In this document: in pieces, positions 1 to 14,355 of the stretch
Numbering within the stretch: position 1 is the first letter of the stretch
How the letters are laid out: the number at the start of each line of letters is the position of its first letter
Virus record (IMG/VR): IMGVR_UViG_3300040815_000399
Location: 1-25,990 of that record
Length of the DNA stretch: 25,990 bases
Strand: one strand, 5' to 3'
From: a virus
Translations under genes and position numbers: made by a program
Notes under the pieces: model-generated
Database searches by the model: none
Seen by the model: the letters and a program-made list of their open reading frames with translations, nothing else
What the model was told of the DNA's origin: nothing

Positions 1-1495
1 CTATGCCTGTTGAGGTGGCGGTTAGTATATCGCCTGTACCATTTAAATGTATCCTGTAACTACCATCAGAAACAGCTCTGTTATACCAAGGCTGATTAGA
101 ACCTTGCTTTATACCAAACTGGTAATCAGAGCCTGTTAGATTTAATCGTTCATCAGAAGCATCCCAAAAGAACTTAGCTGTAGTTCCTGTGTCTTCGTAG
201 AAGGAGATGTCTCCGCCTGTACCTATTTCGAAACGCTTTGTTGCTGGGTTGGTTGTGTCACCAGTGTTTCCATAAATCCTAAAGTTTGTTTCATTATCAA
301 TAGACCAAGACGCATCTGTTCTTGTTAAAGCAAAACTAGCTACATTGCTATTATCAGAGCCGTCAATATGGAGAAGTCCATCTACTTCAACAGAATCAGC
401 AGTTACTGTACCTGTTACGTCTATGCCTGTTGAGGTTGTGGCTAGTTTTGGTGAACCATCATAAAAAATAGTAACCGCACCACCATCAATAGCTGTTAAA
501 TAATCATCTTCAGTTGCGTATGCTTCTAAAAGCAGATTGTTAGCTCTTATTTTTAAGTCACCACTTCCAGTATCTGTAATAACACTATTTGAACCAGTAT
601 GATAAATTTGCAAATCATTACCTGTACCAAACTGAGCCTTTACGCTGTCTGGGAAGGTTGTGCCGTTGGCATCTAAATAGTCTTCTATCTTGGTGTTTAA
701 GGAGGCTGTTGTTGCCTGGTTAGATGCGTTACCTATAAATATGTTGCCATCATTAAGGTTTGGTACGGCATTTGTTCTCCCCGCACCACCTACCTTGATA
801 GATCCTGCTGAGGCATGAACTCTTTGAACTTTACCTATGTTTTGGATTAAAGAAGACTCACCAGCGGGGGGAGAGTTTGTTAGTCCACCAGGAGTAGTTG
901 AAACATATAAAGTGTCCCCTAAAGAAAACCCAGGAGTATCAGTATCAACTCCAGAAATAGTACCAAAAGTTACAACTTCTGTAGATCCATTGGCTGAGGC
1001 GGCTGTTAATACCAAGCCAAAAGCGGGCATTTTATTTGCATCATCTGCATCTGCCAAAGAAACTACTGGGGTATTGCCAGAGATACCTGACACATAAACC
1101 GCGTCACCCTTAGAAACAGCTTCGCCTGCCTGAGCTTTAAATATGACTGCACCACGAAGATCTCCGATAAATTCATCGGCAGTAACTTCACCTGCGTCTA
1201 CTTGTGGAAAAAGTTCAAGAATAGCAGCAGTAAGCCTTAGCTCAGCTACGGTACCGGTAGAAAAAGAAGTTGCGCTGGTGTTATCTTGAGCCCTAGTTAC
1301 TGTTAGGGTATTTGAAGATACAGCTGTGACCTCAACAATTTCAATGTTGGTTCCATCGTCGAAGGTGCAAAAAAATGTATCACTACCAGTTAGCGTCGGG
1401 AAAACGCTTCCGTCCGCAACCGTAATAGATGTGGCCGAGGACGTTATGCCGGATGCAAGTGTTGTTTTTGCATTGTTCTTAAAAACAACTGCCAC
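1..1495 (-). CDS. Tail fibre protein, 3' end outside window
   Basis: The reading frame is open from a GTG at 1495 to the left edge (498 codons seen, no stop). The start is chosen because an AAGGAG ribosome site lies six bases upstream and the frame opens there. The N-terminal 95 residues (ITVADGSVFP, ITVAD...VEVTAV, TVTRAQ, AELRLTAA) look like the attachment domain shared by many phage tail fibres. A middle beta-rich region follows (KGDAVYVSG, FGLVLTAA, GDTLYVSTTPGG). From about residue 260 there are fibre-shaft motifs (LQIYHTGSNS, TDTGSGDL, KLATTSTGIDVTG) typical of marine phage receptor-binding fibres. The shaft motif TSTGID recurs at the cut end, so the protein is repetitive. It should sit at the virion tail and contact the host surface. 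The receptor cannot be inferred. The start could be another GTG/ATG, but the RBS supports this one. Confidence 0.8.
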   Translation of the reverse strand, partial: MAVVFKNNAKTTLASGITSSATSITVADGSVFPTLTGSDTFFCTFDDGTNIEIVEVTAVSSNTLTVTRAQDNTSATSFSTGTVAELRLTAAILELFPQVDAGEVTADEFIGDLRGAVIFKAQAGEAVSKGDAVYVSGISGNTPVVSLADADDANKMPAFGLVLTAASANGSTEVVTFGTISGVDTDTPGFSLGDTLYVSTTPGGLTNSPPAGESSLIQNIGKVQRVHASAGSIKVGGAGRTNAVPNLNDGNIFIGNASNQATTASLNTKIEDYLDANGTTFPDSVKAQFGTGNDLQIYHTGSNSVITDTGSGDLKIRANNLLLEAYATEDDYLTAIDGGAVTIFYDGSPKLATTSTGIDVTGTVTADSVEVDGLLHIDGSDNSNVASFALTRTDASWSIDNETNFRIYGNTGDTTNPATKRFEIGTGGDISFYEDTGTTAKFFWDASDERLNLTGSDYQFGIKQGSNQPWYNRAVSDGSYRIHLNGTGDILTATSTGI

Positions 1496-1512
1496 AGCTT
1501 ACTCCTTAAAAA

Positions 1513-1938
1513 TTAAGAAACTGTTACAGTCCAGGTAATTGTCATTGAGTCAGACGCACCTTTGTTTACAACTGAAAATACTGTTCTACATAACATAGTT
1601 CCGCTAGAAGCTGCATTTAATATACCCGCTTCTGTAATAGCACCCGTTCCTGTACCTGCGCCAAATGTAGCAACATAAGTAACATCCGCTCCGCTAACAG
1701 TAGTAGAAGTTAAAGCAACCCTAGCTGCCTCACTTCCCAATGCAGAATCACTTGCTGCGGCTGCAGTACTACCTGTACCAATAGCCATACGTGACATAGC
1801 AGTAGCAGTAGCATCTTTCATTCTACTAGCTACATATTCTTTGCCATCCGTAACAACAAGGTTATCTACTTCTTTGACTGTTTCGCCATTTATAGCGATT
1901 GCTAACTTACCTTTTAAAGTTAAACCGTCTTTTATCAT
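1513..1938 (-). CDS. Small beta-rich phage tail/structural protein
   Basis: A 141-residue protein between the repeat protein and the tail fibre. After a short N-terminus (LKGKLAIAINGETVKEVDNLVV) it has the run MAIGTGSTAAAASDSALGSE followed by RVALTSTT, VTYVATFGAGTGTGAITEAGI and a C-terminal strand ending TITWTVTVS. This arrangement is familiar from small structural proteins encoded near tail fibre genes in many phages and prophages. Their exact position in the virion is generally not known. It has no signal peptide, membrane segment or catalytic motif. Its ATG is preceded by AGGAGA, and it sits 8 bases after the upstream gene and 17 bases before the fibre start, consistent with co-transcription in the tail operon. 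The role as a virion or tail-assembly component is inferred from family resemblance and position. Confidence 0.65.
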   Translation of the reverse strand: MIKDGLTLKGKLAIAINGETVKEVDNLVVTDGKEYVASRMKDATATAMSRMAIGTGSTAAAASDSALGSEAARVALTSTTVSGADVTYVATFGAGTGTGAITEAGILNAASSGTMLCRTVFSVVNKGASDSMTITWTVTVS

Positions 1939-1946
1939 AGTTTCTC

Positions 1947-3167
1947 CTAGTTTAGTGTCCCGACATTTAATCCAGCCGCGTTAATAACGCTGTGGCTTCG
2001 TACGGTAACAACATTTATAACTTCTGATATTGTAGCACTATCTGTATAAGAATTGCCAAGACTTAAAGATAATGCTTCAGAAACTGAAATACTGTCTGTT
2101 TTAGCTAAAGACGAACTTACAATAGGGGCATCTGTAAAGCTAAAAGAATCTGCAAAAGGTTTACTTGCTTCGATTGCAGGACTGTCAGACATTCCGTACG
2201 TGTCGCTTAGTATCTTACTGAATGTGTACGAATGGTCATCTGTAAAACCAAAAACGTTAGTTTTAGCTGAATCTACATCTGTTTGTAGTGGGTCATCAAC
2301 AGAAGCTATATCGTCTAAAGATACAGTATCGCTAAATGATCTAGCAAAAGTAACAACTCTAGAGAAAACTTGATCCATGCTTAAGCTGTCTGTTTTACCT
2401 AAACTTGGTGCTAAGGCAGGGCTATCCGTTAGTACTGCTTCGTTGTTCGGTACAACATTAGCAAAACTTAAAGCTTGGCTATCAGTAAATCCAAAAGAGT
2501 CTGTTTTAGTTGTTGTAGTTGTAAAACTAGGGGCAGTATCTACTAGAGTAGGGGTATCAGTAAGGCTTTTAGTAAAGCTCCAGTCGTCTGTATCAGTAAA
2601 ACCAAAAGAATCTGTCGTAGCAGTTTTATTAAGATTAAACGTAGGAGCTGCGTCACCCATACTAAAGCTATCTGTATATACAGGTTCTACGCTTAAAGCT
2701 TGGCTATCTGTAAAACTGTAAGAATCACTAAAATCACGAATAAAAGTAATTAGAGTTTGTACTACTTCACCAAAAGCAATAGAGTCAGAAACTGCTTTAC
2801 CTACCCCTAAAGCAGGTTCATCTACAAAACCATAAAAATCAGTAAGTGTTTTACCTACATCAAAGGCTGTATCCTCTAACATAGTTACACTGACAGCGTT
2901 TGGTGAATCGTTTTGTGGTATGAAATATAAGTTCTTACTATCTGCGTCTAATAAAACATCTACAGCAGATAGATTTACGTATTGTACTAAAGAGTTTAGA
3001 TTGACATATTGAACTAGCGTTTGTACTAGTTGACTGTGTACGGACGTTTTAGCGTCTGTAAAACTTAGACTTGTACGGGTTTCTTCTTGAGAAACAATGA
3101 CGCGTATCTCAGAAAAAGATACGGTCGCTTTTAGATCTACATAGCTAAGTTTTGCACGGAAGGCCAT
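1947..3167 (-). CDS. Repeat-rich tail-associated structural protein (about 18-residue Ser/Thr-Asp repeats)
   Basis: A 406-residue protein made largely of imperfect repeats of about 18 residues, with the core K-x-hydrophobic-[ST]-D-[ST]-x-x-[FM]-x-[DE] (for example TDSFGFTD, SDSYSFTD, ADSFSFTD, TDSISVSE). I count roughly 14 units from residue 100 to 390. The N-terminal 60 residues carry a looser form (LSYVDLKATVSFSE, TRTSLSFTD), followed by a direct repeat, LVQYVNLNS/LVQYVNLSA. It is acidic, free of membrane segments and rich in beta-prone Ser/Thr. This suggests an elongated fibrous virion component, but no family name can be given. Its start overlaps the stop of the BppU-like gene by one base, so the two are probably translationally coupled. 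The repeat DNA creates long phantom frames on the other strand. Confidence 0.6.
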   Translation of the reverse strand: MAFRAKLSYVDLKATVSFSEIRVIVSQEETRTSLSFTDAKTSVHSQLVQTLVQYVNLNSLVQYVNLSAVDVLLDADSKNLYFIPQNDSPNAVSVTMLEDTAFDVGKTLTDFYGFVDEPALGVGKAVSDSIAFGEVVQTLITFIRDFSDSYSFTDSQALSVEPVYTDSFSMGDAAPTFNLNKTATTDSFGFTDTDDWSFTKSLTDTPTLVDTAPSFTTTTTKTDSFGFTDSQALSFANVVPNNEAVLTDSPALAPSLGKTDSLSMDQVFSRVVTFARSFSDTVSLDDIASVDDPLQTDVDSAKTNVFGFTDDHSYTFSKILSDTYGMSDSPAIEASKPFADSFSFTDAPIVSSSLAKTDSISVSEALSLSLGNSYTDSATISEVINVVTVRSHSVINAAGLNVGTLN

Positions 3168-3541
3168 TAATCAAAATCGTCACGCACCTTAAACTTGACT
3201 AGGTCTTGTACTGTCTGTATTTGTCCGTTTGATTTAGTAAACTCTAACTCACCTTCATACGTACCAGCAGCTGTCCAAGTACCTGTAGGAAAAGTCAAAG
3301 CACATTCGCCTCCGGTAGCATCTGTAATACTAGCTGTTATTGTTTGTAATACTGTTGTCTGTCCTACTTCTCTAATTCTAAATCTTACAGTACCACTTGA
3401 TAAATCAATAGGAGCCCATGTAGCATCATTCTCTACATCTAACGTTTGTCCTGCTGCAGCTGTATTGCTATCTTTTAAAGTAAAGGTCAACTCTGGTAGT
3501 GTGTCCCCTACTACTAATTTAATTGTGTCTGAGTAAGCCAT
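3167..3541 (-). CDS. BppU-like baseplate/tail protein
   Basis: A 124-residue protein beginning MAYSDTIKLVVGDTLPELTF and continuing with TVRFRIREVGQTTVLQT, then GTWTAAGTYEGELEF and VKFKVRDDF at the end. The pattern of a polarised Ig-like beta sandwich, with LKD near the first strand, a central VRFRI strand and the closing GTYEGELEF, resembles the N-terminal domain of BppU-type baseplate upper proteins. Those proteins organise receptor-binding proteins at the phage tail tip. The length matches that single domain rather than a full BppU. It lies 8 bases downstream of the giant internal protein gene and overlaps the repeat protein by one base. A tail-tip adaptor role is therefore likely, but it is inferred from motif resemblance and gene order. 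Confidence 0.6.
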   Translation of the reverse strand: MAYSDTIKLVVGDTLPELTFTLKDSNTAAAGQTLDVENDATWAPIDLSSGTVRFRIREVGQTTVLQTITASITDATGGECALTFPTGTWTAAGTYEGELEFTKSNGQIQTVQDLVKFKVRDDFD

Positions 3542-3549
3542 AACTAATT

Positions 3550-6500
3550 TTACCTCCCTAATGCTCTAGTGTCGAGCTGTCCATATACAGGTAGCCATTT
3601 ATATCCATCAAAGTCACCAGTAGCTACATCCCATGCTTTTTCTGCACTTGGTCCTAATATAGGCACAAAGAATGGGTTTCCATATCTTTTATCTTCCATA
3701 AATAAAGGAATAGCTAAAGCAAAGGGCCCTAGCTGACCTGATCTATCTAGAACATCAAACCAATATTCCCCGCTAGACATACTTTGTGAAGCCCTATAAT
3801 TAACTCCAGGGTCATTTGGACTTATACCAGGCAAGAGCCAAGATAGTCCTATTTTAAATCTTTCTCTTAAATCCCAACCCAACATAGTCAAAGGCATCAA
3901 TAAACTTGCACCGAATAACAAAGGTGCTACGCCATCTGCTATATGCCCTGTTTCTCCTTTTCTAGCTTTACCTTCTCTAATCAAGCCGCCCATTATGTTT
4001 TTGCCATATGCATAGTAGAAAGATTTTAACTGCCAGACTAATGCAAAGTTAGGATCAGAAGCCCAAATAGGCCTTTCTGCTGCGTTAGGTCTTACTATAG
4101 ACTCATCTACAAATCTACCCATAGCTGCTGCTACTTCAGGGTGTGCATCAATATCTTGTCCTTGCGCAGCTAAAATTTGGTCAGCTGTTACGTTAAGTTC
4201 TTTTAGATATCTTTCTGAAAGCAAGTAATCTTGGTCTCCTTCATAGCCATTCTTTATTGTTTCTGCATGTTTAAGTAAAAAGTCTCTACCCATACCAGCT
4301 GCAAACTTTCTAGTAAACATAGTCCATCTTTCTAACTGCGTATACTTAAACCAACCATTAGATAATTTTCTACCCCATTGGTCTAGCATGTCCATCTCAC
4401 CTGCGTACAAAATAGTAGTAGCCGCAGCTTCAACACCGTTAGTACCTATAGATTTAGCCAGTCTTGCTCCTTCTTTTTGTCCCATAGCTTGATATAAATT
4501 CTTGCCAACAGTTTTTAAATCAGTATTTCTACTACGCAGAATAGGCCCTGCTGCGTCTGGTATAGAAGCAAAAACAGCCATACCCAAAAGGTTAAGTACA
4601 TTTAACAACAGTCCTCCACCTGTTATTTTTCTCCACATGTCATTCTTGATAGGATTTATATTACCTAACATAGCATCTATAGCTTCTTTAGCTTGAGCTC
4701 GTTCTTCTGCAGGTAATTGATTTACTAAAACATTTACCCTAGCTGCGCCTCCTCTTTTTTCGTATTCAGCACGTCTGACTGCTTTTCGTACGTATTCAAG
4801 AATTGCTATTTCAGGGGGTAGAATTAAGCCTTCGTTTAATAATGTTTCGCTATCTAAAGCTTCATATAGTTTAGCTCTATCCTTCTGCATGCCTATTTCA
4901 AAGTCGTCATTTTTTGTAGCTAAATTAGGATCTTTTTGATTTTTCTTTATTGTTTTTTCAACATTTTTTGTAGCTTCTTCTTCCGTAATGTTATTACGTT
5001 CAGCTAGTAATTTAATAAGAGTTGCACGTTTTGCATCTTTAGAAGCAATGTCTTGTATGTGTAATATACGAGGGAAGAAGTTAGGTCTTCTTTCTATATC
5101 ATACTTAGATAGCTCTAACTCATCATATATGTCGAACAAAAACTTACGTACCTGCTGTGCTTTTGGAGAGAGTTCTGCGTCCGAAAGCTTTTCATTACTA
5201 GCTTCTTTAAACACTGCTACCTCTTCTTTAGTAAAAGCTTTGTCTGTACCAGTAAGAACATTTATATTGTCATCATCTCGCAAAATACCTACAAGTCTAT
5301 TTATAAACTGGTTAGTTCTTCTATTAGCTTCATTAATAAAACCTACATCTTTTTGGTTGCCGCTTACTGTATGAAAGATATCTGCAATATCTTTACCAAC
5401 GCCGGTATCTGCGCCAAGTGTGCCTAAGAAACTGTGAGCATCATAGAATAATTTTTTAAACCATTTAGGCATTTTTCCATTTTTAATAATTCTTTGTGCC
5501 TCATCATTAATTCTTTTTACTTGTTTCTCTCCTACTTTAGGTGGGAAGACTGCATCTAACATATCTTCTATATGAGCTTTCTCCATATAAGTAGTATCAT
5601 TCTCTCTAGTGCTAGGTTCTTTAGCAGCGTCTAATACACCGTTTACATACTCAGCAAATGTTTCACTAAAAGCAAACCTATTTTGTACTACACTTATCTG
5701 AGGTCTAATACTATTCTCAAATGCTTTTATAGATTTTGCAATACGCAGTAATACAGACTCTCCTATGTTTTTAGCTTGTAAGACTTGTCCTTTATCTAAG
5801 TCAAAAAGGTAAGCACCTATTTTGTCAGAGGCCCACTCTTCCATTCCGTTTGCCTGTTGCCACTGTCCTACTTCTGGACTTTTTTCTTTGGCTTTATTAA
5901 ATTCTTTAATTAACTTTGCCCTAATTTTAGGGTTGCCTAAAGTTTTTAAAAGTTCTGTTCGTAAAAAACTATGACCTATTTCATGTCCTAACCTTTTGTA
6001 ATATAGGCCTTGTAAATCTAAATCAGGGTCTATGCCTACCTTTAAAATGATAACATCGTAGTCCCTCATTTCTATATTAATACCTTTTATGGAGTCTTTA
6101 CTTAAAACATAATCTTTACGTTCATTCAGATATTTGTTTACGTTCTCATCTCCAACATCAATGTTTTCACTTTCTCTAGTAGTAAATACTTTTATCTCTT
6201 TTGTAATGTTTAATTTATCAGTTGCAGTTTTTATCAACTGTTCAATGATTGCTTTATTAACGCCAAAACTATTTACGAAGTCTTGTGAAATAGTTACATT
6301 CTTTGGCCTAGCTCCAGGCTTCTGTTTAATCTTAGTAAACTGTTGTTTTGCCCAAGATGCTTGTTCCGCGTCCCACTGTTCATCTGCAGGCATCTCATTA
6401 AAAATAGGATCGCCTTCCTCTTCACTTATTTGTTCAGGCCCTAAATCTTGCATAGGGTCAAAAGCTCCTTCATTTAAAACTCTTTCCAAAGTTTCTAAAT

Positions 6501-9210
6501 CACTGCTATCAAACTCACCTTCTTGCTCGGTACCTATACGTTCTTGTAGCTCATCTGCTTTTTGACGTACGAGGTTTCTATTTCTAGGATCAATCCCAAA
6601 CCTATTATTAAGACGCTTTTCTGGTTTGGTTAAAGGCTTATCTTCTTGTTCTCTAGCAGCTTCAAAAAGTTGTCCTAGAGTAAAAGTCAAGTTTCCATCT
6701 TCTTCTGTATACACAACTGCTTCTGGATCAGAAAAGGTTGCGTCCGAGATATCATCGAATTTAAAAGTAAGCTTTTGGTTATCGCTTTCTAATAGACTAC
6801 CTACAAGGGTAGTAAAAGTGTCGGCAAGTTGCTGTCTGTAATTTTGGTTACTATCTATAACTCCCGTTCTACGCAATACTCTTAAGTAGTTATTTAGTAA
6901 ATTTGGCATATCTACTGCTCTAGAAGTGCCATCGTTAGAAGCTATTTGCCAGCGGCTTTGTCTTGCTCTTTTAGTATCTTTAGCTCTTCGTACGGCAGCA
7001 TCTAAATCACTTTTTATAGACTCAAATCCTTCAGCTCTTTGCATAGGGTTTGTTGCATATGGTGCTATAACGTATCCACCATCTTGTTCTTCTATTTTAT
7101 AAGTTCTTTCTGCATCAAAATACACATCAGACACTTGTACGTACCTTTGAAGAAGAAGCCTAGAATATTTATTGTCTCGTATATTTTTATCAAACTCTTC
7201 TCTAAACGCAGGGTCTACTAAAGCTCTAGCCTCGGCTACTAATTCTGGAGAAGGTTGTGTATTTTCATAGTTCTCATCCGGTGCTGACCAAGGTTTTTTA
7301 TTTTGATTTATAAAGGTTTTAGTTTCTACCTTACCAGTATCTTCGATTTTAGTAGGAACTTCTGATTCTATTGTTTCTTGGAAGTCATTTTCAAACTCTC
7401 TAAAATCAAGATTCTCTTGCATAGAATCTAAATCAGTATCTTCTATAAGATTTTCTGTAGGTGCTACAGCTTCAGACCTAGCATCTAAATGTGTTTCTCC
7501 ATCTACAAGTTCGTATGTGTACTCGGGGTTATTACCAAAAAGTTGCTTAGCTTGTTCTAAATGTGTTTGCCCGTCTTCGTTTATTGCACTAGTTTGATGG
7601 TAGTGAACAGGCACGCCGTCTTTATTTTTTACTTCTACTACATGTGTATCAGTAGCTAACCTACTACGGGGGTAACTTAAGAAACTACTTAAAGCATCAT
7701 CTAACAACTTAGTAGAAGGAGTATTTAACTCCATAATTTGTTTAAAAGATTGAATTTGTTCTGGGTCAGCAGATAACAAAATACCACCTAAACCTGTTTC
7801 AGGGTTGCCCATGTCATAGCCTTTAAGGTTAGGGTACTGTTTAAGTACCTCATCTGCGATAGTGTTCCATTGATCGTAGCTATTCACATCTATCCAAACA
7901 TTTGTCTTTTTGTTGGTTGGATCCATCATGGCGTCTATTTGAGCTTTAATATAAGAAGCAGGTTCTTTTACTACACCAGGACCGCCTTCTCCATATTTTG
8001 CTCTATACATCTGTTGTAAGGCTTCTTTTTGTTGGTTCGTTTGTAGAAGTTCGTTAGCCTTTGCAGTAATACTAGATGCTGTAGTTGCAGCTCCACCCAT
8101 ACCAAAACCACCTACTGCACCAGCAAACGCAGAGGTTGCTAAATCTAACTTAGCTTGTTGTCTAGTGTATTCATCATCTATTGCAAACTTTTGTGCTACT
8201 TCAATAGCTGTTTGTCCTGTCTCTGCTAAACCTTCTGCACCACTAGATACACCAACAGAAGTAAGCGCTTTCTTACCTATTTGAGAACTTTGCTTACCCG
8301 CTGGGGTTAATAAAGACCTACCCCCTGAATTTTTAAATACATCAGTAACTGCATCGAATACTATCTTTTCTGTACCTACTCCTATAACAGTTGCAGGCAC
8401 ACCTAAAAGACCTGCTTGTAAAGCATTAACAGGATCAGTCATACCTTGGTCTGCAAAATTACCAAAGAAAGTACCGGACATTTGCGGGTACTCTTGCGCA
8501 GCTGCACCAGCTATACCACCTCTAGTAAGTCTTCTTTTATACATTTGTGCTTGAAAGTTTTTATAGACTGCGTCCATAATCTTTTTTTGTTTGTTACTTA
8601 AGGCTTGTTTTTTAGAAGCAGCTTCTACAGCTTCTGTAACCATCTTTCTAGTTAAACCTTGTTTAGCTAATCTAGTCGTTACACCTTCGGCTGTTTTTTT
8701 AGTTATTGCAGCTCCAGTTGCGCCTACTAAAGTAGCAGGTACGGTTGCGGGAGAGGTCAAGGCTGCGATAGCGGTACCAACTAAAGCAGTACCTACAGTA
8801 GCTACAGCGGAAGGAGCTATCTCTCCTGTAAACCCAAGTGCAGCATTCATAAAATCTTCAAATGTGCCGTTCTCAAAAGCTGCTCTTTCAAATGCTGCTG
8901 CAGAGTCTACGTAAGAAGCAGCGCTACCAGCCGTTTGCGCTTGTTCAGCTTCATATATAGAGTCTCTCATCGCCTGTTCTTGACCCGTCATAGAGTCAAT
9001 CATAGCTTTGAAATAATTGGTGTTAGCCTCTATGTTTTTAACACCTTTATTAAAACCAGAAGCTATCTGTCTAGCGGGATCAAACTCATAGCCAAGTACA
9101 GGTGTGGGTGTTTCTTCGGCGTAAAGCCCAGGTACAGCAGAATCTACGTCAGGTACGTCATAAAGAGAGCTTACCAGCGATTTGACTGGATCATTGGATT
9201 GTTGCGACAT
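3550..9210 (-). CDS. Giant internal virion (ejection) protein with a zincin-like HExxH domain
   Basis: At 1886 residues this is the largest gene in the window. Long Ala/Gly-rich hydrophobic stretches lie at about residues 127-172 and 1530-1557, and a membrane-like segment at about 1753-1775. The middle is charged and alpha-helical. At residues 1076-1080 is HEIGH, a zinc metallopeptidase-type HExxH motif, followed 43 residues later by EEWASD (1124-1129), which could supply the third zinc ligand. The C-terminal 350 residues (RFVDESIVRPNAAERP, WQLKSFYYAYGKNI, ending GQLDTRALGR) resemble the end of very large marine-phage polyvalent or internal proteins. Like T7 gp16, it may travel into the cell with the DNA, cross or open the envelope, and carry an enzymatic payload. 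No lysozyme or transglycosylase motif was recognised. It overlaps the upstream 741-residue gene by 20 bases. The ejection role is inferred; the motif is seen. Confidence 0.7.
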   Translation of the reverse strand: MSQQSNDPVKSLVSSLYDVPDVDSAVPGLYAEETPTPVLGYEFDPARQIASGFNKGVKNIEANTNYFKAMIDSMTGQEQAMRDSIYEAEQAQTAGSAASYVDSAAAFERAAFENGTFEDFMNAALGFTGEIAPSAVATVGTALVGTAIAALTSPATVPATLVGATGAAITKKTAEGVTTRLAKQGLTRKMVTEAVEAASKKQALSNKQKKIMDAVYKNFQAQMYKRRLTRGGIAGAAAQEYPQMSGTFFGNFADQGMTDPVNALQAGLLGVPATVIGVGTEKIVFDAVTDVFKNSGGRSLLTPAGKQSSQIGKKALTSVGVSSGAEGLAETGQTAIEVAQKFAIDDEYTRQQAKLDLATSAFAGAVGGFGMGGAATTASSITAKANELLQTNQQKEALQQMYRAKYGEGGPGVVKEPASYIKAQIDAMMDPTNKKTNVWIDVNSYDQWNTIADEVLKQYPNLKGYDMGNPETGLGGILLSADPEQIQSFKQIMELNTPSTKLLDDALSSFLSYPRSRLATDTHVVEVKNKDGVPVHYHQTSAINEDGQTHLEQAKQLFGNNPEYTYELVDGETHLDARSEAVAPTENLIEDTDLDSMQENLDFREFENDFQETIESEVPTKIEDTGKVETKTFINQNKKPWSAPDENYENTQPSPELVAEARALVDPAFREEFDKNIRDNKYSRLLLQRYVQVSDVYFDAERTYKIEEQDGGYVIAPYATNPMQRAEGFESIKSDLDAAVRRAKDTKRARQSRWQIASNDGTSRAVDMPNLLNNYLRVLRRTGVIDSNQNYRQQLADTFTTLVGSLLESDNQKLTFKFDDISDATFSDPEAVVYTEEDGNLTFTLGQLFEAAREQEDKPLTKPEKRLNNRFGIDPRNRNLVRQKADELQERIGTEQEGEFDSSDLETLERVLNEGAFDPMQDLGPEQISEEEGDPIFNEMPADEQWDAEQASWAKQQFTKIKQKPGARPKNVTISQDFVNSFGVNKAIIEQLIKTATDKLNITKEIKVFTTRESENIDVGDENVNKYLNERKDYVLSKDSIKGINIEMRDYDVIILKVGIDPDLDLQGLYYKRLGHEIGHSFLRTELLKTLGNPKIRAKLIKEFNKAKEKSPEVGQWQQANGMEEWASDKIGAYLFDLDKGQVLQAKNIGESVLLRIAKSIKAFENSIRPQISVVQNRFAFSETFAEYVNGVLDAAKEPSTRENDTTYMEKAHIEDMLDAVFPPKVGEKQVKRINDEAQRIIKNGKMPKWFKKLFYDAHSFLGTLGADTGVGKDIADIFHTVSGNQKDVGFINEANRRTNQFINRLVGILRDDDNINVLTGTDKAFTKEEVAVFKEASNEKLSDAELSPKAQQVRKFLFDIYDELELSKYDIERRPNFFPRILHIQDIASKDAKRATLIKLLAERNNITEEEATKNVEKTIKKNQKDPNLATKNDDFEIGMQKDRAKLYEALDSETLLNEGLILPPEIAILEYVRKAVRRAEYEKRGGAARVNVLVNQLPAEERAQAKEAIDAMLGNINPIKNDMWRKITGGGLLLNVLNLLGMAVFASIPDAAGPILRSRNTDLKTVGKNLYQAMGQKEGARLAKSIGTNGVEAAATTILYAGEMDMLDQWGRKLSNGWFKYTQLERWTMFTRKFAAGMGRDFLLKHAETIKNGYEGDQDYLLSERYLKELNVTADQILAAQGQDIDAHPEVAAAMGRFVDESIVRPNAAERPIWASDPNFALVWQLKSFYYAYGKNIMGGLIREGKARKGETGHIADGVAPLLFGASLLMPLTMLGWDLRERFKIGLSWLLPGISPNDPGVNYRASQSMSSGEYWFDVLDRSGQLGPFALAIPLFMEDKRYGNPFFVPILGPSAEKAWDVATGDFDGYKWLPVYGQLDTRALGR

Positions 9211-12560: not shown

Positions 12561-12990
12561 TAACTTCCTTCCTATAAATTCGTGTATCTAACTCCCATCC
12601 AATCTTTTTGGTGTACGATTCCATCTCTGGAACTCGTGACCTCGCTTCGAGGTACTTACAACCTGCTGATTTTGCTAAGTTGTTAAACCACTCTTCATGG
12701 GCCACCCACTGGTGCCCGCCTTTTCTATAAGTATACGCTATCCATAGCAATAATGTCTTGTCTTTTGTAAACTGATCTACCTCTACAGTCAGTATCAAAA
12801 AACCTACAGACGACATGTAAAGAAAAGCTCTTTCGTTTACACATTCGCTGTAAACATCTTCAGGAATAAAAGTAAGGGTAGGATTTTCTTTTAATATATC
12901 GAGTATGCCTGTTTTTACTACGTTCCAACATTTTCTTATGTCAGCAAACTCGGGTTCCTCAATAGTCGATTTCCTTTCCGTACTTTCCAT
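12550..12990 (-). CDS. Phage protein with possible GNAT-like fold
   Basis: A 146-residue protein. The order of elements is a helix (WNVVKTGILDILKENP), FIPEDVYSECVNERAFLYM, a strand pair GFLILTVE and LLLWIAYTYRKGG, a helix WFNNLAKSAGCKYLEARSR, and a final YTKKIGWELDTRIYRKEV. This fits small phage proteins predicted to have an acetyltransferase (GNAT) fold and commonly found beside connector genes. The classical acetyl-CoA-binding Q/R-x-x-G-x-G/A loop is not convincing here (YRKGGHQWVA in its place), so enzymatic activity is doubtful. The start is supported by AAGGAGACGGT just upstream of the ATG. The gene overlaps its upstream neighbour by 32 bases. The fold and any role in virion assembly are inferred. 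Confidence 0.55.
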   Translation of the reverse strand: MESTERKSTIEEPEFADIRKCWNVVKTGILDILKENPTLTFIPEDVYSECVNERAFLYMSSVGFLILTVEVDQFTKDKTLLLWIAYTYRKGGHQWVAHEEWFNNLAKSAGCKYLEARSRVPEMESYTKKIGWELDTRIYRKEVNGS

Positions 12991-13633
12991 ACCGTCTCCT
13001 TGGTAGTCCTATTCCTTTGTACTTAACAGTTCTTTTTACCCCTAGGTCTCCGCCTCGGGCCCTTAATTCTGCTTGTGTTATTTCTAAATTAAACTGATAT
13101 AAATATTCTTGTGCCGCCCCTATGTCTGTCCATTCTCTATTTGGCATCCTTAATAACCTATATAAAGTGCCATATATAATCGCATCTCTGTACTGATTAG
13201 AAATTGTAGTGTCAATATTATTTGAAGTCCTGCTTGGCTTTAGAGCTAGGCTTACTATTACTTGTTTAGACCCACTTGGTACTGGAACAATCCAAAAAGT
13301 AGTTGCTGTTTTTTGCAGATAAACGTGAGGGTTTCCGGTTCTATTCCTCCAATCTGGGTAATTTAATTCTAAACTACGTGGGCTAATAGGGTCCATGTCC
13401 CTACCATCGTGTGTCATTAGTAAAACTTGATGAACTTCTGTTCCTGTAGGTATATCAAAGTCGTATTCATAAACCCCAGAAATAGTATTAAAAGGATCCA
13501 TATCAAGTATGTATGCTTTAGACCTTTCACAAAACTCTATAGTAGCAGAACGTAAGTTCTGTTCTACTAAAGAATCTGGGCACAACGGTACATAAGGTAG
13601 TACTTCTTTTACTAAAGAAGAATAGGCTGCCAC
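12959..13633 (-). CDS. Head-tail connector / tail adaptor-type protein
   Basis: A 224-residue protein beginning AAYSSLVKEVLPYVPLCPDSLVEQNLRSATIEFCERSK. This matches the pattern of a conserved podovirus protein found next to the connector, with an N-terminal helix pair, Cys-Pro turn and IEFCERS helix. A beta-rich middle follows (YEYDFDIPTGTEVHQVLLM; FWIVPVPSG; VIVSLALKPS), and then a helical region, YRDAIIYGTLYRLLRMPNREW. The C-terminus is very basic (GLPRRRYGKYGKEID). The predicted start is GTG, with AAGGTAGGT just upstream. It follows the previous connector gene by only two bases. Together with that gene it probably forms the ring stack between portal and tail. This is family resemblance plus position, not proof. 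Confidence 0.6.
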   Translation of the reverse strand: MAAYSSLVKEVLPYVPLCPDSLVEQNLRSATIEFCERSKAYILDMDPFNTISGVYEYDFDIPTGTEVHQVLLMTHDGRDMDPISPRSLELNYPDWRNRTGNPHVYLQKTATTFWIVPVPSGSKQVIVSLALKPSRTSNNIDTTISNQYRDAIIYGTLYRLLRMPNREWTDIGAAQEYLYQFNLEITQAELRARGGDLGVKRTVKYKGIGLPRRRYGKYGKEIDY

Positions 13634-13635
13634 AT

Positions 13636-14355
13636 TTACCTACCTTGCTGCATTATTTTGGGAACAGCTCCTATGTTAGACACTTGGTCGTTATTTGGAT
13701 CTAGTAAAGCTGAAGACTGTAAACCTTGACTTATACTTGATGTAAATAACTGATAATGACTAGAGGCTCTTTGAGAATTTCCTGCGTACTCCGCATCTTT
13801 CATATATGCTCTGTAAAGAACAAAATCAATAATAGCGTTAGCATAAATATCATCAACACTAATAATGTCACTAGCTGCTGATAAATCTGTAGGTGCGGCT
13901 GAGTAAACGATTTCTACGTATGAATTACCAGATACGCCTGGATACACGTAAAAGTTTCTTGGGTCATCTTCATCAAAGATATAATGTTTTACAATAGCCC
14001 CGTGCGCTGCATCTCCTGAAACTGCAGGATCATGCCAATCCGGTTCTTGTGTATTTAAAATGTCAACGTTTACTATTCTAATAGACCTTTTACCAGTGCC
14101 GTCAGAAGCAGCAGACATATTTCTTACTACTTTTATTAGCCTTAAACCTGCTGCAGGCAAAGATTGTTTAGTTCCAGCAACTAAAGTTATAGTAGCTGTA
14201 GTAGCACTAGACTCAGGCCTGAAATTAACAATCTCTCTTTGTGCATCGTTTATATAGTTTAAGAGTTCGGATTCGGTCCATCTAACACTAGTAGTGTCTT
14301 GTAATGTATCCCTAATTCTACTAAGTAAATTAGTGCCTGTAAGTGTCCCTGCCAT
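13636..14355 (-). CDS. Phage adaptor/connector protein
   Basis: A 239-residue protein. The N-terminal motif LLSRIRDTLQDTTSVRWTES, followed by ELLNYINDAQREIVNFRPE, is typical of a head-to-tail adaptor family in which a helical bundle packs against the portal ring. I believe this family is catalogued as DUF6682, but I cannot check it. A beta-rich central part follows (ITLVAGTKQSLPAAGLRLIKVVRN; NFYVYPGVSGNSYVEIVYSA), then a helix DDIYANAIIDFVLYRAYMKDAEY and a Ser/Gln-rich tail. It lies six bases downstream of the SAP-like gene and two bases upstream of the second connector gene, which fits a head-completion module. Its role is closing the portal and docking the tail. Confidence 0.65.
   Translation of the reverse strand: MAGTLTGTNLLSRIRDTLQDTTSVRWTESELLNYINDAQREIVNFRPESSATTATITLVAGTKQSLPAAGLRLIKVVRNMSAASDGTGKRSIRIVNVDILNTQEPDWHDPAVSGDAAHGAIVKHYIFDEDDPRNFYVYPGVSGNSYVEIVYSAAPTDLSAASDIISVDDIYANAIIDFVLYRAYMKDAEYAGNSQRASSHYQLFTSSISQGLQSSALLDPNNDQVSNIGAVPKIMQQGR

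What the first reader, a model, noticed from the sequence alone, without database searches (positions are those of the whole stretch)
5824..5985. HExxH zincin-like domain inside a 1886-residue internal virion protein
HEIGH at residues 1076-1080 with EEWASD 43 residues later resembles a zinc metallopeptidase active site. Internal virion proteins of podoviruses more often carry a cell-wall hydrolase. A peptidase delivered with the DNA could cut host proteins or process virion proteins.
Basis: partly seen in the sequence, partly recalled or inferred. Interest (0 to 1): 0.6.

Follow-up and report, generated by a model that had tools for sequence, protein, structure and literature searches.

The report
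Zinc-peptidase domain in phage ejection protein
A giant protein that this short-tailed phage probably carries inside its particle contains a well-conserved zinc-peptidase (zincin) domain, an instance of a theme already described for phage "polyvalent" proteins; here it appears to be an optional module set into a conserved ejection-protein scaffold.

Summary
Confirmed. The 1886-residue protein (window 3550-9210, minus strand) has one HExxH (H1076-E1077-x-x-H1080) and a third-ligand glutamate 49 residues on. That ligand is E1125, not E1124: E1125 and D1129 are invariant in 41 aligned relatives, while E1124 varies. In a set of relatives recruited by patterns outside the motif, 18 of 18 loci keep HExxH + E-[W/F]-x-x-D. 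AlphaFold2 (pLDDT 86.5) gives the zincin order: helix, three strands, HExxH helix, Glu helix. Most top structural matches are zincins (M61 and M1 aminopeptidases, MMPs, anthrax LF, YbeY), but Z stays below 8 and the metal-site distance could not be measured. The idea is not new: zincin-like MPTases are the commonest domain of phage "polyvalent proteins" (Iyer 2017), and N4 virion RNA polymerase has one. New detail: the ~636-residue C-terminal module is homologous to the shorter virion-type proteins of LUZ24-like phages, which have no HExxH. So the peptidase lies in an accessory region absent from that scaffold. Most likely it is an active gluzincin-type peptidase ejected with the DNA, either releasing cargo by self-cleavage or cutting host proteins; nothing here decides between these.

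The parts
3550..9210 (-). 1886-aa giant putative internal virion/ejection protein (P0001)
   Evidence: single ORF; lies between structural genes and tail-fibre genes; relatives keep the architecture
5721..6309 (-). zincin-like metallopeptidase domain, residues 968-1163
   Evidence: AlphaFold2 model mbcd7ffbde92f, pLDDT 86.5, pTM 0.78; VIA-align matches to zincins
6043..6198 (-). three beta strands of the zincin core (residues 1005-1010, 1043-1047, 1051-1056) with the helix between them
   Evidence: secondary structure of the model
5938..6021 (-). active-site helix, residues 1064-1091
   Evidence: model
5971..5985 (-). HEIGH (1076-1080): two zinc-ligand histidines and general-base E1077
   Evidence: invariant H, E, H in A3 and in the independent set
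5794..5847 (-). second helix, residues 1122-1139, with the third ligand
   Evidence: model
5824..5841 (-). EEWASD (1124-1129): third ligand E1125 (5836-5838) and invariant D1129 (5824-5826)
3553..5460 (-). conserved C-terminal module, residues 1251-1886, homologous to LUZ24-like virion proteins
   Evidence: hhalign A5 vs A6: prob 99.4, E 7e-22, 576 columns
7861..9210 (-). N-terminal region, residues 1-450, Ala/Gly-rich with hydrophobic stretches (131-157, 261-279)
   Evidence: weak profile match to the LUZ24-like N terminus, prob 87 over ~106 columns

Best explanation
Residues ~968-1163 of this giant protein form a zincin (gluzincin-type) zinc-peptidase domain: H1076 and H1080 plus E1125 hold Zn2+, and E1077 activates water. 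The domain is part of an accessory region set into a conserved ejection-protein scaffold. The protein is probably packaged in the head and ejected with the DNA, as described for polyvalent proteins. The peptidase then acts during or after ejection, either in cis, cutting the giant chain to free its N-terminal/middle part from the scaffold (slightly favoured), or in trans on a host protein. Shown here: motif, conservation, predicted fold, and absence from shorter homologues. Inferred: zinc binding, catalysis, packaging, target.
For: Single HExxH plus Glu 49 residues on. H, E, H, E and D invariant in 41 relatives, most at 19-40% domain identity, and in 18/18 loci recruited without the motif. All four ligand/base residues are among only 12 invariant positions of residues 961-1160 in 11 full-length homologues (p ~8e-6 if placed at random, phylogeny ignored). 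AlphaFold2 order matches the zincin core. VIA-align top rows include YbeY (Z 7.9), M61 (7.5), MMP-11 (5.6), LTA4H (5.5), ERAP1 and anthrax LF, several aligned across the whole model. BFVD hits include a 38%-identical viral protein (TM 0.87) and 'large polyvalent protein' entries. The same domain is in cultured Aeromonas phage phiA008 (hhalign 97.5%; BLASTP). Relatives of the protein carry other effector-type domains: SNase and a sub-threshold ART-PolyVal. The C-terminal scaffold is shared with LUZ24-like virion proteins lacking any HExxH. Literature: MPTases of polyvalent proteins (PMC5512222); HExxH C1 domain of ejected N4 vRNAP (PMC12633501).
Against: No Pfam peptidase family reaches its cut-off. 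No Foldseek PDB hit has E <= 0.001, and VIA Z stays below 8, a level the tool says can be a common arrangement. Metal-site geometry was not measured. No second effector domain is recognised in the window's own protein. N4 vRNAP is packaged unprocessed (PMC5512222), so self-cleavage is not general. The window is a virus record without proteomics.
Confidence: 0.72

Rival explanations
1. The peptidase is mainly a host-directed effector: after ejection it cuts a host defence, transcription or envelope protein in trans.
For: Accessory, not scaffold; the part before the motif varies greatly in length (HExxH at residue 1001 to 1552 while the C-terminal part stays ~785-890 aa) and relatives carry SNase or ART-like domains, which suggests cargo. 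Iyer et al. list this option.
Against: No target evidence; Iyer et al. favour processing; fixed position next to the scaffold module would suit processing.
Confidence: 0.35
2. The domain cleaves its own chain (or other virion proteins) during assembly or ejection to release the parts.
For: Proposed for polyvalent proteins and consistent with phage P1 DdrB processing (PMC5512222); the domain lies at the border between the variable region and the conserved C-terminal module.
Against: N4 vRNAP is packaged uncut (PMC5512222); no cleavage site was identified; the LUZ24-like scaffold exists without it.
Confidence: 0.4
3. A catalytically idle zincin fold kept for structure, for example for encapsidation, since the region holding the N4 vRNAP MPTase is reported to be needed for packaging.
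For: The region holding the N4 MPTase is required for encapsidation (PMC5512222).
Against: General base E1077 and all ligands are invariant while the rest of the domain diverges to ~20% identity, which is not expected of a pseudoenzyme.
Confidence: 0.15
4. A zincin-fold enzyme that is not a peptidase (YbeY-like metallo-ribonuclease, or IrrE-like).
For: YbeY-type structures are the first or second VIA match (Z 7.9; Z 7.4); IrrE/PprI are also listed.
Against: YbeY uses three His and no HExxH/Glu set (own knowledge); the HExxH...E...D set here is that of gluzincin peptidases.
Confidence: 0.06
5. Chance HExxH in a helical structural protein.
For: None beyond the shortness of the motif.
Against: Expected 0.008; conservation and fold.
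Confidence: 0.02

Closest known systems
Zincin-like MPTase domains of phage polyvalent proteins (Iyer et al. 2017, PMC5512222)
   Same: Helix, three strands, HExxH helix, Glu helix; set in a very large multi-domain protein among late virion genes; co-occurs in relatives with effector-type domains
   Different: Assignment to one of their 12 clades could not be tested; no Pfam PolyVal model matches this domain; no second recognised effector domain in the window's own copy
C1 domain of coliphage N4 virion RNA polymerase (PMC12633501)
   Same: HExxH domain followed by a large C-terminal region, in an ejected giant protein
   Different: Profile comparison is weak (prob 7%); the C-terminal region shows no match; no RNA polymerase part was recognised here
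Aeromonas phage phiA008 gene 66 product (UIS74281.1, 2050 aa)
   Same: Same domain and same C-terminal module (33% identity)
   Different: Carries an N-terminal SNase-like domain; annotated only as hypothetical
LUZ24-like phage particle proteins (tf gp51, UFV-P2 gp58, and the JB8 homologue)
   Same: C-terminal scaffold homologous over ~576 columns; possible N-terminal similarity
   Different: ~1021-1055 aa, no HExxH, no zincin match
phiKMV gp37 (internal virion protein)
   Same: Internal virion protein with HEAVH followed by ELVAW
   Different: About 1337 aa; HExxH at residue 423; homology of the domain not tested

Membership tests
Zincin superfamily of zinc metallopeptidases | HExxH on a helix | tested here: met
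Zincin superfamily of zinc metallopeptidases | Core of N-terminal helix, three-stranded sheet, HExxH helix and a following ligand helix | tested here: met
   secondary-structure order of both models; VIA rows mostly zincins but Z < 8
Zincin superfamily of zinc metallopeptidases | Three ligands gathered round one metal site | not testable with these tools
   no coordinates returned by the structure tool
Zincin superfamily of zinc metallopeptidases | Zinc binding and peptidase activity | not testable with these tools
   needs the bench
Gluzincins (Glu third ligand) | Conserved Glu on a helix downstream of HExxH | tested here: met
   E1125 invariant, 48-60 residues after the first His
Polyvalent-protein MPTases (PMC5512222) | Zincin domain in a very large protein encoded among virion genes of a phage | tested here: met
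   gene order and PHROG/Pfam hits of neighbours
Polyvalent-protein MPTases (PMC5512222) | Combination with other, biochemically different domains in the same polypeptide | tested here: inconclusive
   none recognised in P0001; relatives have SNase (above cut-off) and ART-PolyVal (E 7e-5, below cut-off)
Polyvalent-protein MPTases (PMC5512222) | Belongs to one of the 12 described MPTase clades | not tested
   their alignment was not at hand; no Pfam PolyVal peptidase model matched
Polyvalent-protein MPTases (PMC5512222) | Delivered into the host with the DNA | not testable with these tools
   only indirect: homologues annotated as particle proteins
N4 virion RNA polymerase C1 domain | Sequence-profile homology | tested here: inconclusive
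   hhalign prob 7%, E 0.005, 40 columns round HExxH
Internal virion protein with cell-wall hydrolase (T7 gp16 type) | Lysozyme/transglycosylase domain | tested here: inconclusive
   no Pfam lysozyme-type hit in P0001 or the neighbouring structural proteins; a divergent one could be missed

The most novel reading that the evidence does not exclude
A LUZ24-type ejection scaffold serves as a carrier into which phages insert swappable cargo. In this largely uncultured lineage the universal cargo element is a not-yet-catalogued zincin subfamily that cuts a host protein right after DNA entry.
Probability: 0.25. Interest if true: 0.6.

Novelty: new member of a known kind. Interest (0 to 1): 0.36.

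Why it matters
It confirms that a proteolytic domain, not only a cell-wall hydrolase, is fixed in the ejection machinery of a lineage of mostly uncultured podovirus-like phages. The comparison of proteins with and without it (LUZ24-like phages lack it, phiA008 has it) makes the open question of what zincin domains in ejected phage proteins cut directly testable in cultured phages.

Tried and rejected
Pfam, PHROGs and PDB sequence searches with the domain gave no family above cut-off for the window's own sequence. Foldseek against PDB was dominated by helical chance hits; N4 vRNAP did not appear in the structural lists, which is no evidence against kinship. Profile comparison to N4 C1 was weak, and to the N4 C-terminal region absent. 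A plasmid search gave only chance hits. A search of bacterial and archaeal genomes found no relative (one pattern only, so prophages are not excluded). The NUFM, stromelysin and shikimate-kinase sequence hits were judged chance. E1124 as ligand was rejected because it varies. A chance motif was rejected. A dN/dS comparison did not single out the domain (0.118 versus 0.101 overall, dS near saturation).

Full report
The window is a whole virus record of 25,990 bases from IMG/VR. On the minus strand it carries terminase, portal, a scaffold-like protein, a major-capsid-like protein, two genes matching the SU10 adaptor, several small structural genes, a 741-aa protein, the 1886-aa protein and then tail-fibre-type genes. 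This order places the 1886-aa protein where podoviruses keep their last and largest internal virion protein. 'Scaffold' and 'capsid' are my reading of order and composition.

The motif is real. HEIGH is at 1076-1080 (5971-5985) and EEWASD at 1124-1129 (5824-5841); there is one HExxH in 1886 residues, with 0.008 expected.

Conservation. Close relatives (82% and 39-46% identical in the best segment) keep it wherever the region is covered. A profile search brought 42 loci, all with HE[IL]GH followed by E-W-x-[SA]-D. Because that search used the motif itself, a second set was recruited with peptides of the C-terminal region only. All 18 loci keep HExxH with variation inside it (HEIGH, HEIAH, HELGH, HEMGH, HEVGH, HEFGH), and all keep E-[WF]-x-x-D. 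In 11 distinct full-length homologues, residues 961-1160 hold 12 invariant positions, among them H1076, E1077, H1080, E1125 and D1129. In the 41-sequence alignment A3 only L1000, H1076, E1077, H1080, E1125 and D1129 are invariant. The residue before the ligand (E1124) is not conserved, which settles which glutamate it is. Relatedness among sequences makes the probability estimate only indicative.

Fold. Two AlphaFold2 models (290 aa, pLDDT 77; trimmed 196 aa with 41 sequences, pLDDT 86.5) give helix, strand, helix, two strands, the long HExxH helix, another helix and the Glu helix. This agrees with the core described for polyvalent MPTases in PMC5512222. Foldseek in PDB was uninformative. VIA-align on its candidates put zincins at the top: AQ_1354/YbeY Z 7.9 (3.4 A, 97 aligned), M61 peptidase Z 7.5 (2.4 A, 81), MMP-11 Z 5.6, LTA4H Z 5.5, ERAP1 5.0, anthrax lethal factor 4.9, and PPEP, abylysin and others further down (similar). 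Non-zincin rows (GH67, GH20) lie at Z 4-5, so the lower rows alone mean little. In BFVD the best hit has 38% identity with TM 0.87, and lower hits include large polyvalent, SprT-like and PolyVal metallopeptidase entries.

Architecture. In complete homologues the distance from HExxH to the C terminus is nearly constant (783-889 aa; 971 in phiA008), while the part before it ranges from 1001 to 1552 aa (one 1217-aa ORF, L059, is shorter). The C-terminal module aligns by profile over 576 columns with the 1021-1055-aa virion-type proteins of LUZ24-like phages tf, UFV-P2 and the similar phage JB8 (prob 99.4, E 7e-22). Their N termini may also match (prob 87, about 106 columns). They have no HExxH and no match to the zincin profile. 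So the zincin and its neighbouring region are absent from that smaller scaffold; whether it was gained in one lineage or lost in the other is not resolved. The LUZ24 homologue is called a phage particle protein, and nine LUZ24 proteins were found by mass spectrometry in its virions (PMC3517423), which supports but does not prove that this family is in the particle. Relatives add other modules: SNase in phiA008, and a sub-threshold ART-PolyVal plus two HExxH motifs in Roseobacter phage CRP-810.

Known context. Iyer et al. 2017 describe zincin-like MPTases as the most widespread domain of polyvalent proteins, present in N4 virion RNA polymerase, and propose self-processing or host targeting. The N4 structure paper reports the HExxH C1 domain. 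The finding is therefore a further member of that theme. Profile comparison with N4 C1 is too weak to claim direct kinship, and clade assignment was not possible.

Mechanism. The full set of catalytic residues, kept while the rest of the domain diverges, argues for an active peptidase. The accessory status argues that it serves something beyond building the ejection conduit. I give self-processing about 0.40, host-directed cleavage about 0.35, structural role about 0.15. These are judgements, not results.

Noticed in passing
window 12959-13633 and 13636-14355 (-): Two adjacent genes both match Pfam SU10_adaptor (E 3.5e-12 and 9.3e-41): apparently a tandem pair of head-tail adaptor paralogues.
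   Followed up: no
L011 (Roseobacter phage CRP-810) 650-6700 and 6672-9191: gp35 (2016 aa) has two separate HExxH motifs, one with EEWFAE, plus a sub-threshold ART-PolyVal hit, while part of the conserved C-terminal module lies in the next gene, gp34: the domains appear split over two genes.
   Followed up: partly
L009 (Aeromonas phage phiA008) 3066-9218: Staphylococcal-nuclease-like domain (PF00565, above cut-off) at residues 28-112 of a relative that also has the zincin.
   Followed up: partly
L031 4155-10613: FtsK_gamma-like segment upstream of the zincin (E 0.0011 in the full protein; one A2 member gave 7e-10, identity of that member not checked).
   Followed up: no
L079 (phiKMV) 3567-7580: phiKMV gp37, annotated as an internal virion protein with endolysin domain, has HEAVH at residue 423 followed by KELVAWGL, like the N4 C1 pattern NEFMAW: possibly another zincin.
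   Followed up: partly
L010 (KPP25) 3-5477: HESMH sits 774 residues before the C terminus, the same place as the zincin here, but without the EW..D motif: a possible degenerate or divergent version.
   Followed up: no
L059 7544-11194: The ORF holding the zincin is only 1217 aa, against 2107 in the near relative L058: a truncated or frameshifted N-terminal part, or a sequencing error.
   Followed up: no
window 6331-8013 (-), residues 400-960 of the protein: About 560 residues of the accessory middle region match no Pfam family; possibly cargo domains of unknown kind.
   Followed up: no
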